Shown here: positions 53,824 through 64,000 of the stretch, in pieces | Position numbering within the stretch: position 1 is the first letter of the stretch | Layout: the number at the start of each line of letters is the position of its first letter | NCBI GenBank assembly: GCA_963924555.1 | Contig: OZ004596.1 | Location: forward strand, 310,001 to 374,000 | DNA length: 64,000 bases | Source: Crambe crambe | Lineage: Eukaryota; Porifera; Demospongiae; Poecilosclerida; Crambeidae | Direction: 5' to 3' | Notes under the pieces: generated by a model | Databases searched by the model: none | What the model was told of the DNA's origin: nothing | What the model saw: the letters and a program-made list of their open reading frames with translations, nothing else | Program-made: the position numbers and the translations under genes

Positions 53824-56823
53824 TTATGTATGCAACTTGCTCAAAATAGCTTCTCTGTTGAACTTGAACTTGATCATGTGTTTGGCAGGCTGCAGGGAGA
53901 GGTGGAAGGCTGTGTTGGCTGTGTCATTCAAAGGCTGTTTGCCTTGAGGAGTGGAGAGTAGTGTTCTCCTGGGACTCTGGGCAGCAGCTGGCAGTGTGAG
54001 TGGTGACTGCTGCTCTTCATGAAGGTAGTGCGAGCTCAAGGACACTGATTGGGTGCCTCTGGCTGGATGCTGAGCTTGCAACTTGAACTCTTCTCTCACT
54101 GGTTCTTTTGCTTGCTGATACAGCAGAGAAGGCATTTGTCCCACTGAATACACCCGCGTCATTTGACCTACTGTTGCAGGAGGGTGTCCTAGTGCAGTGT
54201 GTGTGGGGTAGGTTGTACGAGGGTTTGGTTCCATGGGATGTTGGAGCAGGACAGGGCCAGGGTGCAGTGGAGTAAGATGGGGGAGATCTGCCAGTGGAGG
54301 TTGTTGAGTGGCATAACCATGGTGAGGATGTGAAGGGGTACTGAGTAGAGGGGATGAGGAGTAGTTTGGGTGGGGATGGCAGATAAGCGATGGGGAGATG
54401 GGAGAAGTCAAGAGGGTGGGGCTGATATGTGAAGGGGTGCTGAGTAGAGCTGGAGGTGTCTGTCGAGGGTGTGTCAAGGGGATCAGTGGAGCTGAGAGGG
54501 AATGGCTTGGATGTGAGGATATGATATATTGTGGGTGTGGAGGGATGCTGAGTGCAGCTGAGAGGGAGTGTCCAGGGTGAGGGTGTGGAGGGGTACCGGG
54601 TGCAGCTGAGAAGGAGTGTCCAGGGTGTGGAGGGGTGCCGAGTGCAGCTGAGAAGGAGTGTCCAGGGTGAGGGTGTGGAGGGGTGCCGAGTGCAGCTGAG
54701 AAGGAGTGTCCAGGGTGAGGGTGTGGAGGGGTGCCGAGTGCAGCTAAGAATGAGTGTCCAGGGTGAGGGTGTGGAGGGGTGCTGAGGGAGTGACTTGGGT
54801 GAGGAAAGAGGTTATATTGAGCTGGGTGAGGTTGTGATGGGATGAGTGGTGCTGTGAAGGATTGATTGGATCTGGGGTGAGGGTGAGGGTGATGTGGAGT
54901 GGAAGAAAGGGGAACAGGTGAAGTTCCACTTCTTAGAACAGGTTGAGTGGCTCCTCCTCGTTGGGTGTTGTCCAAATGAGGATTGGAGAGTGAACGCAGA
55001 GATCCTGGTTCTCCCTTCTGACCATCACTAGGAGCAGGAAGAAGTGGTTGGTTGGATCCCTTGAAAGTAGCAGAAATTTCTCTTCCTTTACTCTTCTTGT
55101 TCTGTTGTATCCACCTCCTCAACCGCCTGTTTATCACATGAAGATCACATGATATCTAGCATGCTGTTTTACTACTCACCCTATGAAAGGTATAATCATG
55201 AAGAAGTTGTTTGAATTCATTCCCAGTGCTTGCTGAGATGCCATATCCTTTTTATAGGAGGGAAGATCTCTAATGCTAAACCACTGGATCTTCTATTTAA
55301 AGGAATACTACCGTGAATTTTAAAATTTCTAGCATGGTGAATAGCCTTACTCCAATTTCCTTTCTGGTCTTTGGCTGGAATTGAGTTTTGTCGGGCACTC
55401 CAGGAATCAGGTACATGCGTGCATTGCTGTCATGGATACTGGCCTCTAAGTAAGAATCTTTCTTGATGATTCCACGGATATCAAAGCCTGTCTCTTCATA
55501 GACTTCACGAATAGCTGCAGCTTCATCTTCTTCACCTTCCTCTAGCTTGCCCTTGGGGAAACCCCAGGATGTGCACGAGGGGTAACCTTGCACCAGAAGA
55601 CACTACACAAGATAAGCGGACCTCACACCCCAGCATGGTCCCCTACTTCCCCATACTTTTGTCCAGTCCTGGTTGAGGATAATGGCCCCCCTCACTGGTT
55701 TTCTATATTTGTGAGTCTTCCACTCACTAATGAGTTTGTCCAGGTCTCTTGCAGTGGACTTGCTGATCAGCCATGGACAATGTTTGAAAACTGTCATAAA
55801 AAAAAAAAATAAAAAAAAAAAGTCAAGTAGACCTATGTCAGTCATGTGATCATGTTCCGCCCCCACCTATGTCAGTCATGTGATCATGTCCCGCCCCCAG
55901 CCCCCCACACTTGTCAGTCATGTGATCATGTCCCGCCCCCAGCCCCCACACCTGTCAGTCATGTGATCATGTTCCTATCCCAGTCCCCACACCTATGTCA
56001 GTCATGTGATCATGTTCCGCCCCCACCTATGTCAGTCATGTGATCATGTCCCGCCCCCAGCCCCCCACACTTGTCAGTCATGTGATCATGTCCCGCCCCC
56101 AGCCCCCACACCTGTCAGTCATGTGATCATGTTCCTATCCCAGTCCCCACACCTATGTCAGTCATGTGATCATGTTCCTATCCCAGTCCCCACACCTATG
56201 TCAGTCATGTGATCATGTTCCTATCCCAGTCCCCACACCTATGTCAGTCATGTGATCATGTTCCTATCCCAGTCCCCACACCTATGTCAGTCATGTGATC
56301 ATGTTCCTATCCCAGCCCCCACACCTATGTCAGTCATGTGACTATGTTCTTACCCACACCTTTGTCAGTCATGTGATCATGTTCCTATTCCCAGGCCCCC
56401 CAAAACCTGATCAAGAACGGAGAACCTGTTCCTAAGTAGCTACACTAGTGTCCAATATCCTTCCAGTTGCATGTGATGACTGACTACACTGTCTAGATTT
56501 GGAAACATACTCGTGCTCATAAACTCCTTTAAGTTGCAGCCTGGGAGGGTGGGGTCCTCTGGTCGCATCAGGTCCAGATAAAACCAGTGTGCCAACTCTA
56601 TGTGGGAGCAGAGCTTAATGGGGTCTTCTTTGTCCTCATTAGACAGGTTGATGAGAAATCGGCTGCAGTTCGAAGTATTTATTATTTAATATAGTTAGCC
56701 AAGGTGGGCTTTAATTGGAGGTATTAGTATACCCTCATACAGCACCAGTGAGTGAATTTCTTACCTAGCCAAGTCGTCGAGCACTTCAGCCTTGATTCCC
56801 ACCGTCTTTAAATTTATTGCCAT
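53824..56823 (-). CDS. DCP2: mRNA-decapping enzyme 2
   Basis: Nudix hydrolase that removes the m7G cap in 5'-3' mRNA decay. Six exons: 56765-56823, 56511-56662, 55657-55790, 55351-55602, 55180-55292, 53824-55126; 670 residues. N-terminal Box A domain: VLDDLASRFLINL, ELAHWFYLDLM, FKHCPWLI. Catalytic Nudix box: GFPKGKLEEGEEDEAAAIRE followed by VYEETGF, with the usual Glu residues. Box B: IQWFSIRDLPSY, NNFFMIIPFI. The remaining 400 residues are a Pro/His/Ser-rich tail with an expanded repeat, ending HMIKFKFNREAILSKL, a helical leucine-rich motif of the type that binds decay partners. The intron at 55791-56510 is filled by a minisatellite. Confidence 0.95.
54480..54800 (-). repeat. Coding minisatellite in the DCP2 tail
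   Basis: Six to seven copies of a 13-16-residue unit TPPHPHPGHSFSAALG. Several adjacent copies are nearly identical in DNA, so the expansion is recent. Confidence 0.9.
55830..56395. repeat. About 38-42-bp minisatellite in a DCP2 intron
   Basis: About fourteen copies of a unit with GTCAGTCATGTGATCATGTT plus a C-rich half (CCGCCCCCAGCCCCC or CCTATCCCAGTCCCC). Blocks of two to three units are themselves duplicated (55846-56000 versus 56006-56160). Confidence 0.93.
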
Positions 56824-57009: not shown

Positions 57010-60000
57010 TTAATCAACTTCATCTTTATTTGTTTCGTCTGACCAGCAGCTCAGGTGCTCCATGGACACATTTGGAATGTCTTTAGGGGGAAGACCAAGC
57101 ATCACCTCTTCCTCTTCTTCATCTTCCTCCTCTTCCAATCTCTCCTCCAGTACCTCGATAGATTCTTTGTGAGTGTCCAGCTTAGGAGGCCGCGTTAAGT
57201 GGATGCGTTCATCCATGTCCTTACCGGGCATGCTCATACTGCGTATAAAGGGCTTCTTTCTGGGCTTGGACCCCAGTGTCATGGATCGTTGTCCTAATGA
57301 AAAGGACTGTTCAGTCTCATTTGTCTCTCTCTTATTCTCTTCATCATGTCTCCCACTTCCCTCCAGTTTCATCTCCAAGTCATCCCCAAATGACACACTG
57401 TGTCTGAGCCTGGCTCCACCCCCAGCTGCTCGGCTCCTGTTGATGGACAGATGTCTCAGACGCATGAACTCTCGCTCCATCCCTTGTCGTCTCAACTGCC
57501 ACTTCAAATTTGCTTGGATCCTTCGTTGTTCCTCGTTGATATCTTCCTCCATGTCAATCATCACTTCGGTGATGGATGGCATGGGATTGGGCTCAAAGAC
57601 ATCCTCACTCCCATCGGAGACGATTCTGGAGCGACGAGACAATGGGGAGTAGGGAACACTGCTGCTACCTTGTGGTACCTCTCCATCTGTCTCGTCCAAA
57701 TCTGAGAGCAAGGCTTCCATTTTCCAGGGGAAGTCCCGCATGACATAATGGAAACCTGACTCCACAAAAGTAGCAGAAGGTCTTTGTTGGTGGAGTTTCT
57801 TGAGTGACTCTTTTTTGTCATCTTCGATCTTTCCATCAGTGTCATTCATGGCTTGCCTAGTCGAACTCTTCCTCAGCACAACAGGATTTTCAAGAATATT
57901 CGCAGAACTAACTCTCCTCCTGCAACACAACATGATATGAATTAATTAAGGGGTCAAAACATAGAAAAGGGGGAATTCTTCAATGCTTCAACTCTGTGTG
58001 ACATCATTATTTAGAGCCTGAAGCTAACCTGGTGCCATTCACACCTCTCTTGATCACCATTTTACAAGTATAGGGTGTGGTTGGTATGGACCACTGCAAG
58101 ATGCATGGCATGGACCACTGCAAGATGCATGGCATGGAACTCTCCTACCTTTGTCTCTTTGAGGTAACACAGAAGGCGTTGAAGAGTTTCTCCTTGATGA
58201 GTCCAAAGTTCACTTTCAGCTGCAGCACCAAGATGCCAATTATCACAAGGATGATCACCATGGAAATAAGCACCACCAAATTCTGTATCGGATTTATATC
58301 AGAGAGCCCAAATCGTTCAAGGATGGCTATTTCTGATCTTCTGAAGCATTCAAGTGGTGAACTTCGATTGCAAGGGAGATTAGTGCCTATCAAAACTGTG
58401 ACACTTGTTGCACCGTATGCATAGAAGGAGGGATTGATATAAAATATCCATCTATAGTACTCTGGCATTAGTGGATAGGGTACGATGAACCCACAACAAA
58501 ATCCTCCAATGGCAGCAAAGACAGGACATAACCTGTGTGCTTGGGAGGGTGATAAGACATTCAAAACGATGAAGATTGAAATCCAGACTTGGTTGACGAG
58601 CAGAAATGCCAAGAGTAGGACCAGATAGGTTATAAAAGTGTAATTCTGGTACACCAAGCCAAAGACTAGAGTGGAACACACAGACAGAGGAAGTGTGCAG
58701 ACTGCAGTCATGCGGATGAACACTTGGAGTATGAGCTCGTGGGATTTGGCCATTCCATCCGAGTGTTCCAGGTAGAAAAGTTTGAGTGGTTCCACCAGGA
58801 GACTGCCAATGATCGAGCTCATAAAGAGAGAACTTGAACAACTGAGAAGACATGTTGCTGACAGTATCTGGACTGGTTCCCTGGTGAACAAGTAAGTAGA
58901 CCCTACAAAAAGAAGATCATAATAATTTATTGCATTCACAAACAGGCCCACCCCCTTGAGGACATCCAAGCCCTTCAATTAGCAACTGACCTATGACCAG
59001 TCCAAAGACTGTGTAGACAATGGGGAGGTAGATGATAGTGAAGAGAGTTTGCCTTAGGGAGGCTCGAGACTCCAGTGCCATTAGTCGTTGCCACAGCCCT
59101 GGGTTATGGCTGTATCTACAGAAAGAAGAAAGAAAGAAAGAACAGTGTTAAGTCTCTGCCACTGGGTTATGGCTGTAACCCTGGGTTATGGCTGTAACCC
59201 TGGGTTATGGCTGTTAACTAAAGGAAAGAAAGAACAGTGTTCAGTTTATACCCAACCCTGGGTTACGGTTATGGCTGTTAGTACTGCAGGAAAGAATGAG
59301 ATAATGTAATAAAGTATGTGAGATAATGAGGTAGTGTTTTGAGAGAGGGGGGAAAACACCATGGTTACGCTATGTTTCATCACACTGTGATGTCTGGGAT
59401 CATAACATCTTCACTTGTAGACTTCCTACATTTGATTCAATTAAGTTTGGATTCTTCCTGGAGTTTAAAGGAGTGACAGTCTGACTTCCTCTAGGCAGGA
59501 ATCTCACACTACAAAGTGTGGAGCATCAGCCAAAATACAACTTTGGGAAGGACACTATGTAGCTGTCCTAGGACTGTAAGCTTATCTCACCTCTGAGTCA
59601 TATGAGGGTGATCCACTTCGTCAGTTTTGTTGTCAAGGACTGCTTGCCTGACGTAATCAGGCTCGTTGCTCTCCTTGTAAGCTCGAAGAACTTGCCTTTG
59701 GGATCTCTTTTCCTTCAACAGGTCAAGCACAGCATCTTGAACTTGCCCCTCAGACTCCTGTTAATTACTTATCAATTAGTTCCCTTTTCTCTCTTAGTGA
59801 CACACCTTTAACTCCTTTTCGCCAATCAGGGCCTGACGAAAAAACTCCCACACTTTGACAGGAGAGCCAAAGAAGGCGATTTGTCCGTTGCACAAGAGCA
59901 AGATCTTGTCGAAGGCATGGAAGATTTCGCTCCTTGGCTGGTGGATGGTGACAACAATGGCTCTCCCTGTACCCACCATCACTTGCAGGCTCTTCAAGAT

Positions 60001-63000
60001 GTCTAATGAGGAGGCGGAGTCAAGACCTGCAAGAAGGGGTGTGGTTAGTTATATAGCGAGAGATTCATAGATATACAAGCATACATACCTGATGTCGGTT
60101 CATCCAGGAATATGATATTGGGCATGCTCAGTAGCTGAACAGCAATGTCCAGTCTTTTTCTCTGCAAATAGGAGCATAGGGTGGTAGGTTATGTCAGTGA
60201 TGTCACATTTATAATGGTATTTATTTGATAACATGTAATTCTATCTATCCTCTGGGCATAGCCAACAGGTCCACTTCCAAATAAGGAGAATTCCTAGCAA
60301 CTGCATGCAATGAGTAGTAATCAGGTGTTAAGTGGATTCATTAATGTACTGCTCATTCCTGTGGTAAAACAGCGGCACCTATTATTAGTAAACAAGTGAC
60401 CAGGCAGCTCCTTATTGGTGTAGCACCATTCTAGTTAGGTATGCAGGTTTTTTCCTTGGTATCCACAGAATTATTCCAGTTGTTAAAACAGGATTTTTGC
60501 CCAGCTGTAACAATTCGACATCTTATAGGTTATGTCATCTTTATGGTATTCTATGGAGGGACGAAAGGAAATGTGTGCAGGTGGTGGATACACACACACT
60601 CAAGCCAGTGAAAGTAAACAAAAATGTTGTCACACGTTAAGTGGAAGCCACTCTAGACTGCAACAAACATCTCACGCTTATGGCAGTGGATGAGGTAAGG
60701 GCAAGTCCATATTTACTATCATACTAAATGGACTGGATTAGCAATGACCGCACTGATCCGTATCAACTTTCTTTCTCCATATAAACTAAAGATAGTGTCT
60801 ATGGATACATTGGAAAGTCCGAATTTATTTTACAGCTTCAATTAAGTCCCACTCCCATTCCAATTACTATATTTACCTGACCACCACTGAGTCCCAATCC
60901 GATTCCATCCCCAACCTTGACATCAGCTTGTTCCTCCAATCCAGTTTCTCGTATCACCTGCTCCACCCTCTCCAGCTTCTGCTTGAGAGTCATGCCTTTC
61001 TCTGCCTGCATGCTCATGGAGAAGACAAGGTTCTCTCGGACTGTGAGCTCATTGTAGTATGACTTGGCCAGCTGCCTGACATAGCCTGTGTTCATTATGA
61101 ACCAGTCACGCATCTTGTGGAGAGGCAACCCATTAATGAAGATCTCTCCCTGAAGAATTGTGGGAGTAAAAAAAAAAAATTTAAATGCTACTCAATCTTT
61201 CTCAGAACACTGATATGTCTAATTGTACACAAAATAGATGTCTAGTGTGTTAATTATGAGAATTAAGCACCTATTAAATATCATGATCATATTTCCTCTC
61301 TCTTTCTTCTCATTTGTGGTGACCACAATAGTTTACATGTCTTTGTTCACTAAGAATTTTGATAGCACAAACACTGAGAATTCTCTCCAACATGATATGG
61401 CAACAGAGGCCCTATGCCACACTACCGCCACCGCATATAGCCTATCAATCATCAACATACAGAATTAAGTCTGTAAAATAACTGTTTTGCACTCAGAAAC
61501 ATGAGGGGGTTTATGTGAGTGGAATCCTGACAGAGTATTTAAATTAATGGTGTTTAACAAATATTCATTCTCAAGGGACCATTTCAGAAGTAGCCTATTC
61601 AATGTAACCTAGAACTATGGGAGTTTACAAGTGTCAATGACTGGACTACCAGTAACCTACTCTAACCAATCACAACACTGCTTTACACTTCTGCACATGC
61701 CCTAAGTTATTCGCTGGAGTTGGAGCATACCAACTACTTGCTCGTCTGGACAAACTAGCCATGCAAATACTGATATATTGAATTAAAATACTTTCGAGGG
61801 TGTGTCATTGTTATTTTAGTCGGTACGCCATGCTTCCTGAGTGAGGCAAGTGATATAAGCCACACCTGATGCAGATTAAAGGATGAACCCAAAACGAGAG
61901 AATGAGGACCAAACAACAAAAATGTGTGGACCACAGATACTATGCTTGAGGCCATTGTAAGAGGGGGCATCTATCACACACTGCATGCACCCAAACAGTC
62001 CCAACAGACAACGATAATCCCATCAGCACTGTCGAGAAGAGGAGCCAAATAAGGAAATTGTTGTGTCAATCTGCATCTTCCTGGACTGCACATGTTCACA
62101 TCACAAACAGAATTGCAGGATTGCTGCCAGACGATGTAGACCCCACACTGACAAGCTTGAACACTCACTGCTATAATAGCTTCTGTACAGCTATTCAATT
62201 AATGGAGGCTCACCTCAGTATAACCAGCTGTTCTTCTTCCCAACAGTACATCCAAGAGAGTTGTTTTTCCGGAGCCCGAAGGTCCCATGATGGCTACCAA
62301 CTCCCCGGAGTTCACATACATGTTTACACGATGGAGGATTGTCTTCTTACTTATGCTCCTTCTCTCCCGTTTCAAGGAACTAGCACTTCTTTTCAACCTC
62401 TTGGATTCTCCTTCTTGGTAGGAATTGTTTCCAATGCCAACCAGACTGGATTTGGATCCATCTGCGTCTATATCCAACGAGTCCACGCTCTCCGTATCAA
62501 GGGAATTGGGTGTGATGCTCCTCATGCGACTGTTGATGGAGGAGGAGATCCCCGAATCTACTCTGGTTAATTGGACAGTGGCAGTAGTGGAGCTGTTGTA
62601 TTGATCGTCCACTGGAACATTCTTCCGTGAAATGCACTTCAAACATGGTTTCTTGCAACATGGGAAAAAGGTCTCAACTGCTGCGTAGAGATTGTAGTTC
62701 TGTTCTTCGTGATCAGGAGTCATGTAGGACTCTGCCTTGCGTTCTCTGCCAGAAGTAACAGTATCGATCCTATAATAGAGGTTGACGCATGAAACGTTGA
62801 TAGGAACGGTAGCTTTGGGGAAAGTCTTGGGGGAGTGTTTCAACCTGTAGGCATAGACTCTCTGGCAGAATAGAATAACCTTCATTTGTATGTAAAGTCC
62901 TGACTTGATGAAGGAAGGAATAGCCGTCATCAAAGCTGCCAAGACCAGGACGATGATTTCGACATAGTGAGGCCATCTGGTGATGGTAGGGTTGAGATTA

Positions 63001-64000
63001 ATGGTGCTGGTGCAGTAATTTCCACACACAGGACCTGAACAGTTGTCAGAGTAGAACCGCTGCAATGTGGGATTAGCAAACCACATCTGTAGAGCTTGGT
63101 GGAATGAGCTGAAGTTGAGAGATTGATCATGTGGTTTCACCTTGACCTCATCCCAGTTTCCATTCTTGATTGGATTGGTGAGTTCAAACGGTCCTTCCTT
63201 GACACTGCTGTCCACTGTCTGATTCAAGAGTTTCCCTTCACCCCAAAGATCTGAAGTGGCCAGAAAGACATGTTGGGTGCATGATGGAGCAAAGATGGTG
63301 AGGCTTGGATAACTGCTGTAGCTCTGGATAAAGCTCTCATTCATGATGGAGCCATAACTGTTGAAGATCCGAAGGAGCTCCTGGTCGTCTTCTAGTTCCA
63401 CTCTGTTGATGGTTTCTCGCAGAGTTTCATTGAGAGTGAAGATATCGTAAGTGCTTGAGGCAACAAAAATGGGAGCACTAGTGCCGCTCATGTGTCCTTG
63501 TTTGAAGAGACAAGCTGGAGATGTGCAGCAGGAGAATCCTAGAGTGAAGTCAAGGCACACTGGAGGGAAGTTGAAAAGATTGGCAACATCTTCCTTCCAG
63601 TCAACTACATGACTGCCACTAAATTTCACAAACCATGAAGAATCAATGATGGCCAGAACTTCTGGTGGCATCGAGGAAGATTCATTGAGAAGAGTATCTT
63701 CCACCCACTGAATGTGATTGAGCACTCCAATGCCTCCTGAGCTACTCCCAGCAAGAACCACTGTAGAAGCATCAGCCAGTCCATGATTGTTTATCAGTTT
63801 CCTTATCACAGACTGAAAAATCACCCTGCCTTTATAGATGAAGTTATCTGCACCATCTGTATTGTTGAAGGTTCTGTCATTGACTGTGTAATTTGAAGGA
63901 TCAGGAATGTTAGGATTACTCCGATCAGCAAGAAAGGCATCTTGTGAACAATATGGTACAAGGATGCGAGTGAAATTGTAGAAGAGAGGGTTCTCAGACG
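57010..64000 (-). CDS. NOTUM/pectinacetylesterase-like domain fused to an ABCG half-transporter, 5' end outside
   Basis: Exons in window: 62214-64000+, 60877-61149, 60089-60161, 59806-60026, 59591-59757, 58991-59115, 58149-58902, 57010-57919; at least 1435 residues. The first, uninterrupted exon encodes a NOTUM-type alpha/beta hydrolase ([11 protein letters not shown], nucleophile elbow [15 protein letters not shown], Asp in [12 protein letters not shown], His in [12 protein letters not shown], many Cys and N-glycosylation sites). It continues through a transmembrane segment ([16 protein letters not shown], about visible residue 347), a cytosolic linker, and Walker A ([14 protein letters not shown], about 571). 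Then come Q-loop GYVRQ, signature GLSGGQRKRL, Walker [15 protein letters not shown]-loop TIHQPRS, six ABCG membrane segments, and a 300-residue acidic/basic C-terminal tail. NOTUM relatives remove acyl groups; ABCG proteins move lipids or sterols. The joint role is unknown. The last exon joins in frame at 58149/57919 but could be a separate gene starting at 57933. Confidence 0.88.
59085..59275. repeat. Short tandem repeat in an ABCG intron
   Basis: Five to six copies of CCCTGGGTTATGGCTGTAA with interspersed AAAGAAAGAACAGTGTT-like blocks, beginning just inside the 58991-59115 exon. Confidence 0.8.
60162..60876 (-). other. Intron of the ABCG fusion gene
   Basis: 715 bp between the signature-motif exon and the Walker B exon. 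No gene, array or inverted repeat is recognised. Confidence 0.5.
61150..62213 (-). other. Intron of the ABCG fusion gene
   Basis: 1.06 kb between the Walker A exon and the Q-loop exon. No gene, array or inverted repeat is recognised. Confidence 0.5.

What the first reader, a model, noticed from the sequence alone, without database searches (positions are those of the whole stretch)
57010..64000. A NOTUM-like esterase fused to an ABCG transporter
One continuous ORF (62214-64000) holds a NOTUM/pectinacetylesterase fold, a membrane span, a linker and the ABCG Walker A motif, so the fusion does not depend on splice prediction. ABCG proteins have cytosolic N-termini; here the span would put the esterase outside the cell. 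Coupling an extracellular deacylase (NOTUM removes palmitoleate from Wnt) to a lipid exporter in one chain could be a new lipid or lipoprotein handling machine. I know of no described animal protein with this layout.
Basis: partly seen in the sequence, partly recalled or inferred. Interest (0 to 1): 0.88.

Follow-up and report, generated by a model that had tools for sequence, protein, structure and literature searches.

The report
Esterase-ABCG transporter fusion in early animals
Sponges, corals, a hydrozoan and a comb jelly carry genes for a single protein that joins an esterase related to the Wnt-cutting enzyme NOTUM, placed outside the cell, to a lipid-pump-type (ABCG) transporter in the membrane; I found no description of it in the papers I could search.

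The parts
62214..64000 (-). Exon 2 (in-window part; the exon starts at 64239, beyond the window): esterase, membrane span, linker and Walker A in one open frame
63234..64000 (-). PAE/NOTUM-fold esterase domain, residues 37-368 (its first bases, from 64229, lie beyond the window)
   Evidence: PF03283 E 1e-40 on the spliced model; window coordinates by arithmetic
63741..63743 (-). Nucleophile Ser199 (GSSSGG)
   Evidence: S in 51 of 52 aligned fusion rows
63444..63446 (-). Catalytic Asp298
   Evidence: D in 52 of 52
63270..63272 (-). Catalytic His356 (CxQH)
   Evidence: H in 52 of 52
62907..62963 (-). Membrane span between esterase and ATPase (residues 459-477)
   Evidence: hydropathy 2.39; a long helix at the equivalent place in the AlphaFold2 model of a close relative
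62337..62906 (-). Cytosolic linker, Ser/Arg/Lys-rich; mostly low confidence in the model of a close relative
62262..62285 (-). Walker A (GPSGSGKT)
60877..61149 (-). Exon 3: ATPase, Q-loop region and LSGGQ signature
60089..60161 (-). Exon 4: Walker B (FLDEPTSG)
59806..60026 (-). Exon 5: D-loop and H-loop (TIHQPR)
59591..59757 (-). Exon 6: connector between ATPase and membrane domain
58991..59115 (-). Exon 7: first helix of the ABCG membrane domain
   Evidence: PF01061 on the spliced model begins at residue 974
58149..58902 (-). Exon 8: rest of the membrane domain (six hydrophobic peaks with exon 7)
   Evidence: PF01061; hydropathy
57010..57919 (-). Exon 9: cytosolic C-terminal tail (about 303 aa) and stop codon
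   Evidence: in-frame GT-AG junction; many relatives also have long tails; no Pfam match

Best explanation
This is a single-chain ABCG half-transporter whose N-terminus has been turned to the outside of the cell and carries a catalytic NOTUM-fold serine hydrolase. SHOWN by sequence: one gene and one frame; signal peptide-like start, hydrolase with intact Ser-Asp-His, one membrane span, complete ABC ATPase motifs (Walker A, signature, Walker B, H-loop), ABCG-type membrane domain; the same order in sponges and cnidarians, and esterase-span-ATPase in a ctenophore protein whose membrane domain is incomplete. INFERRED: like other ABCG half-transporters it works as a dimer, so two esterase caps sit above one exit path. 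The pump moves an acylated or acetylated lipid-like substrate outward or to the outer leaflet, and the cap removes the ester group at the exit, which makes release one-way (export and trim). The substrate is unknown. Confidence is about 0.95 for architecture and topology and about 0.4 for export-coupled hydrolysis; the figure below is for the whole statement.
Against: No expression, activity or substrate data. One of 52 aligned fusions (P0017) lacks the Ser. Of the nine relatives, P0001 as predicted lacks signature and Walker B and P0009 ends after Walker B; the Montipora P0138 ATPase has no recognisable signature. The TIGR00955 scores (216-280 bits) are far below that family's cut-off of 736. 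The full-length model is of moderate confidence (pLDDT 63.6). The alignment behind the ectodomain model held three NOTUM rows among 20, which may pull the model towards NOTUM. In P0015 and P0138 the sequon count runs the other way (7 against 8, 3 against 5). Coupling between the halves is tested by no call.
Confidence: 0.5

Rival explanations
1. Membrane-tethered NOTUM: the esterase works on extracellular lipid-modified proteins such as Wnts, and the transporter mainly anchors it or clears the freed fatty acid.
For: Closest solved structures are NOTUM from Drosophila and human; triad kept. In the genome-wide PF03283 search the 15 exon matches fall at fusion loci (C19, C11, two on C8) or at a plant-type PAE cluster (C14, GGGWC), so I saw no canonical NOTUM in this sponge; a direct search with a NOTUM did not complete.
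Against: Trp128, part of NOTUM's oxyanion hole (PMC8172013, passages), is absent in 43 of 43 covering rows and Tyr129 in 39 of 43; Gln-His replaces the NOTUM Ser/Asp/Ala-His. Clytia has two genes called NotumA and NotumO (PMC4169000, passages) besides a fusion protein; I did not check whether either of them is the fusion.
Confidence: 0.2
2. Idle cap: the ectodomain is a binding or gating domain of the transporter, and its hydrolase chemistry is not used.
For: P0017 lacks the nucleophile; the window protein has Ser where human NOTUM has Ala233 next to the nucleophile.
Against: Ser, Asp and His kept in 51, 52 and 52 of 52 fusions across three phyla, hard to explain without catalysis.
Confidence: 0.15
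3. The hydrolase and the transporter are both active but on unrelated substrates, held together only for co-localisation.
For: Variable linker between the halves, of low confidence in the models.
Against: The order and the single span are kept in sponges, cnidarians and a ctenophore.
Confidence: 0.13
4. Artefact: two neighbouring genes read through, a chimeric assembly or a false splice model.
For: No transcript of this very gene was available.
Against: Esterase, span and Walker A share one exon; 50 relatives from several sources; a transcript-type entry (P0015); paralogs in the same genome.
Confidence: 0.01

Closest known systems
NOTUM (palmitoleoyl-protein carboxylesterase; PDB 4uzk, 6zyf)
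   Different: NOTUM is unfused; the fusions lack Trp128, have an extra Cys-Cys pair and Gln before the catalytic His
Plant-type pectinacetylesterases (PF03283)
   Same: Same Pfam family; the same genome has a stand-alone cluster on C14
   Different: GGGWC motif, unfused; the C14 sequence lies on a very long branch in the tree. That GGGWC is plant-type is recalled
Animal ABCG half-transporters (ABCG1, ABCG2, ABCG5/8; White family TIGR00955)
   Same: ATPase-then-membrane-domain order, ABC2_membrane domain, top structural hits
   Different: They start in the cytosol and have no esterase ectodomain or leading membrane span (recalled)
Fungal Adp1 and plant ABCG24/ABCG28 (recalled, from no call)
   Same: ABCG proteins with an extra N-terminal ectodomain and membrane span (recalled)
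   Different: No esterase domain (recalled)
Bacterial peptidase-containing ABC exporters with a C39 domain (recalled, from no call)
   Same: A hydrolase built into an exporter that trims the cargo (recalled)
   Different: Their hydrolase sits on the cytosolic side and is a protease (recalled)

Membership tests
NOTUM | alpha/beta hydrolase of PF03283 with the NOTUM fold | tested here: met
NOTUM | Ser-Asp-His catalytic triad | tested here: met
   present in the window gene; 51, 52 and 52 of 52 rows
NOTUM | Trp128 of the oxyanion hole (Gly127-Trp128 amide) | tested here: not met
   W in 5 of 5 covering NOTUM rows, in 0 of 43 covering fusion rows; role read in passages of PMC8172013
NOTUM | removal of palmitoleate from Wnt | not testable with these tools
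   needs an enzyme assay
ABCG (White) half-transporter | ABC ATPase with Walker A, signature and Walker B | tested here: met
   PF00005 E 5.9e-29; motifs
ABCG (White) half-transporter | ATPase precedes a six-helix ABC2 membrane domain | tested here: met
   PF00005 at 668-823, then PF01061 at 974-1161; six hydrophobic peaks
ABCG (White) half-transporter | score over the curated cut-off of TIGR00955 | tested here: not met
   best family of all four relatives scanned, but 216-280 bits against a cut-off of 736; the window protein itself was not scanned there
ABCG (White) half-transporter | cytosolic N-terminus | tested here: not met
   signal peptide-like start plus one span before the ATPase; prediction only
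ABCG (White) half-transporter | works as a dimer and moves lipids or other small molecules | not testable with these tools
   needs biochemistry

The most novel reading that the evidence does not exclude
A transporter-enzyme of the first animals: an ABCG pump that carries an acylated signal or lipid to the outside and deacylates it at the exit, kept in sponges, ctenophores and cnidarians and lost in bilaterians, where only the free esterase (NOTUM) remains. In this sponge, where I saw no canonical NOTUM, the fusions may be the only NOTUM-type deacylases.
Probability: 0.2. Interest if true: 0.92.

Novelty: new variant of a known kind. Interest (0 to 1): 0.75.

Why it matters
Both halves belong to known families, but a catalytic extracellular hydrolase built into an ABC pump, kept across three early-branching animal phyla and present in several copies in at least some genomes (this sponge, Oculina), is a combination I found in no listing of the literature searches. 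It gives an enzyme-transporter pair whose substrate can be found by comparing products of hydrolase-dead and ATPase-dead forms. It also bears on how NOTUM, a brake on Wnt signalling and a drug target, arose.

Tried and rejected
Chance frame, assembly error or read-through: rejected (and the relatives). A simple Wnt deacylase reading: weakened by the missing Trp128, not excluded. Single origin of the fusion: the fusions are one side of a branch in both trees but with weak support (esterase 68/77, whose only outgroup is one very long branch; ATPase 71/31), so it is neither shown nor rejected. Absence from Bilateria: the six named bilaterian PAE hits (P0034, P0035, P0038, P0158, P0159, P0160) are unfused, but the searches are incomplete. 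One search lists 120 of 177 hits and shows neither P0001, P0002 nor P0007, which were in its own query, so absence is likely, not proven. No placozoan or choanoflagellate is named among the hits; that was not tested further. P0009 (unnamed source) is a very divergent fusion whose organism I could not tell; a non-animal origin is open.

Rows: the 52 'fusion' rows are the window model, 50 proteins with both Pfam domains precomputed, and P0137 (a Montipora isoform without a PF00005 call). They are not independent: several are paralogs, isoforms or near relatives. Left out of those rows: P0020 (no PAE call), P0033, P0134 and P0156 (family-like esterases without an ABC call; they keep the triad) and P0161. 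One search used 25 fusion-type esterases (P0033 among them), 6 NOTUMs and one C14 sequence; one search used 18 fusions (P0020 among them). The Walker B pattern was not found in the C11 and C8 paralogs, perhaps because an intron splits it; this was not followed up. The first Foldseek list shows only ABCG chains in its 50 rows; the esterase of that model was not searched alone.

Papers: searches show no description of the fusion in what they listed (20 of 432, none, 15 of 23, 20 of 34, 11 of 12, none, 8 of 142, 10 of 14 papers). One search was a search for the species. PMC13257379, on extra regions of ABC transporters, holds none of the six terms I looked for. Only open-licence papers are held, so a description elsewhere is possible. 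I saw passages of PMC12166358, PMC4169000 and PMC8172013 and a term count of PMC13257379; of all others only the search listing.

Full report
WHERE IT IS. The window is G000:C19:310001-374000 of a 143,139,886-base assembly in 119 contigs. Five contig lengths seen here (7.66, 7.33, 6.57, 6.54 and 9.17 Mb) agree with chromosomes printed for the sponge Crambe crambe (7.66, 7.33, 6.57, 6.54 and 9.18 Mb; 143,197,480 bp in 124 scaffolds; PMC12166358, passages seen). So the window most likely lies on chromosome 16 of that species; this is an inference from sizes, and totals differ slightly.

THE GENE. On the minus strand, one frame is open from the window's end down to 62202 and, with the neighbouring sequence, is 687 codons long. 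First-order simulations of the window reach 223 codons at most in 30 runs. I joined nine exons by eye at consensus splice sites: 64397-64300, 64239-62214, 61149-60877, 60161-60089, 60026-59806, 59757-59591, 59115-58991, 58902-58149, 57919-57010. All eight introns are GT-AG and the frame holds throughout, giving 1,548 residues. The first exon and the first part of exon 2 lie outside the window.

THE PROTEIN. The first 19 residues are a hydrophobic, signal peptide-like stretch. PF03283 covers 37-368 (E 1e-40), a hydrophobic span lies at 459-477, PF00005 covers 668-823 (E 5.9e-29) and PF01061 974-1161 (E 3.1e-09). The ATPase has Walker [16 protein letters not shown] and TIHQPR. The last exon adds a tail of about 303 residues without Pfam match.

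TOPOLOGY. One extra span between a secreted domain and a cytosolic ATPase is what the parts require. Of 27 family proteins given to one script, 24 had both a Walker A match and a span between esterase and ATPase. In these, N-glycosylation sequons number 191 in 10,468 residues before the span and 56 in 9,959 after it. In one of them (P0015) the script took an earlier peak as the span, and there and in P0138 the counts run the other way. A hydropathy peak at the start was called in 12 of 27; the rest fall below the threshold or may have incomplete starts.

RELATIVES. One search (window protein, residues 33-708): 9 of 12 hits carry both domains. One search (profile of seven fusions): 19 of the 120 listed (177 found) carry both. 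One search (esterase part of the Porites protein): 31 of 38 carry both, one more is an isoform with esterase and membrane domain, six have the esterase alone. Together 50 distinct fusion entries. Named species: Porites evermanni, Oculina patagonica (five proteins), Montipora capricornis, Stylophora pistillata, Clytia hemisphaerica; Corticium candelabrum (two), Oscarella lobularis, Oopsacas minuta, Ephydatia muelleri, Geodia barretti; Bolinopsis microptera (their phyla are from general knowledge). The Bolinopsis protein (988 aa) has no PF01061 call and ends within the membrane domain. Two EukProt entries labelled scpid are, I recall, Sycon; from no call. Close unnamed relatives (P0024, P0025, P0026 and P0031 printed) are single frames that run from the esterase to just past Walker A, like exon 2 here. 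In a scan of 20 proteins, all 20 match PF03283, and 17 match PF00005; the three without are the NOTUMs (members listed).

OWN GENOME. Besides the window gene, exons collinear with the fusion lie on C11 (4308592 down to 4301641) and C8 (329535 down to 316070), with the esterase Ser, Asp and His motifs and Walker A, LSGGQ and H-loop readable in both; the Walker B pattern was not found. A further C8 locus has the esterase start and the membrane domain in order, but its middle is masked. The C14 esterases are a tandem, apparently unfused, plant-type cluster.

TRANSPORTER. The best NCBIfam model for all four relatives scanned is the pigment precursor permease family TIGR00955, below its cut-off. 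A full-length model (P0138, pLDDT 63.6) finds ABCG1, ABCG16, ABCG5 and ABCG25 first. In the ATPase tree two unfused ABCG-type genes of the same sponge fall outside the fusions, with weak support (71/31).

HOW IT MAY WORK. Shown: a chain with an intact extracellular-type hydrolase and intact ABC motor motifs. Inferred: dimer, outward pumping, ester removal at the exit. Against a purely structural cap stands the kept triad; against a plain NOTUM role stand the changed oxyanion and His surroundings. Clytia also has genes called NotumA and NotumO (PMC4169000, passages); whether either is the fusion was not checked.

NOVELTY. The listings of eight literature searches gave no description of an esterase-ABCG fusion. 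Database entries exist but are uncharacterised. I rate it a new variant of a known kind with high interest.

Noticed in passing
window 56443-56685 and 55300-55602, minus strand: Neighbouring gene downstream is the mRNA-decapping enzyme DCP2 (box A, then NUDIX domain), followed by a 443-codon Pro/His/Ser-rich low-complexity frame at 53827-55155.
   Followed up: partly
L009 4471-5145, minus strand (just beyond the window): Upstream neighbour is an arginase-family gene (PF00491, E 2.5e-49); frames further upstream look like a beta-hexosaminidase, judged by eye only.
   Followed up: partly
P0138 (Montipora capricornis): A fusion member whose ATPase has no recognisable LSGGQ signature and an altered Walker A, while the esterase triad is intact: a possible esterase with a dead pump.
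   Followed up: no
P0009 (unnamed source, 17 kb contig): A very divergent esterase-span-ATPase fusion with long branches in both trees; may be from a non-animal, which would make the fusion older than animals.
   Followed up: partly
   Followed up: no
G000:C14 about 7179000-7184000, minus strand: Tandem cluster of pectinacetylesterase genes with the GGGWC motif in a sponge genome.
   Followed up: no
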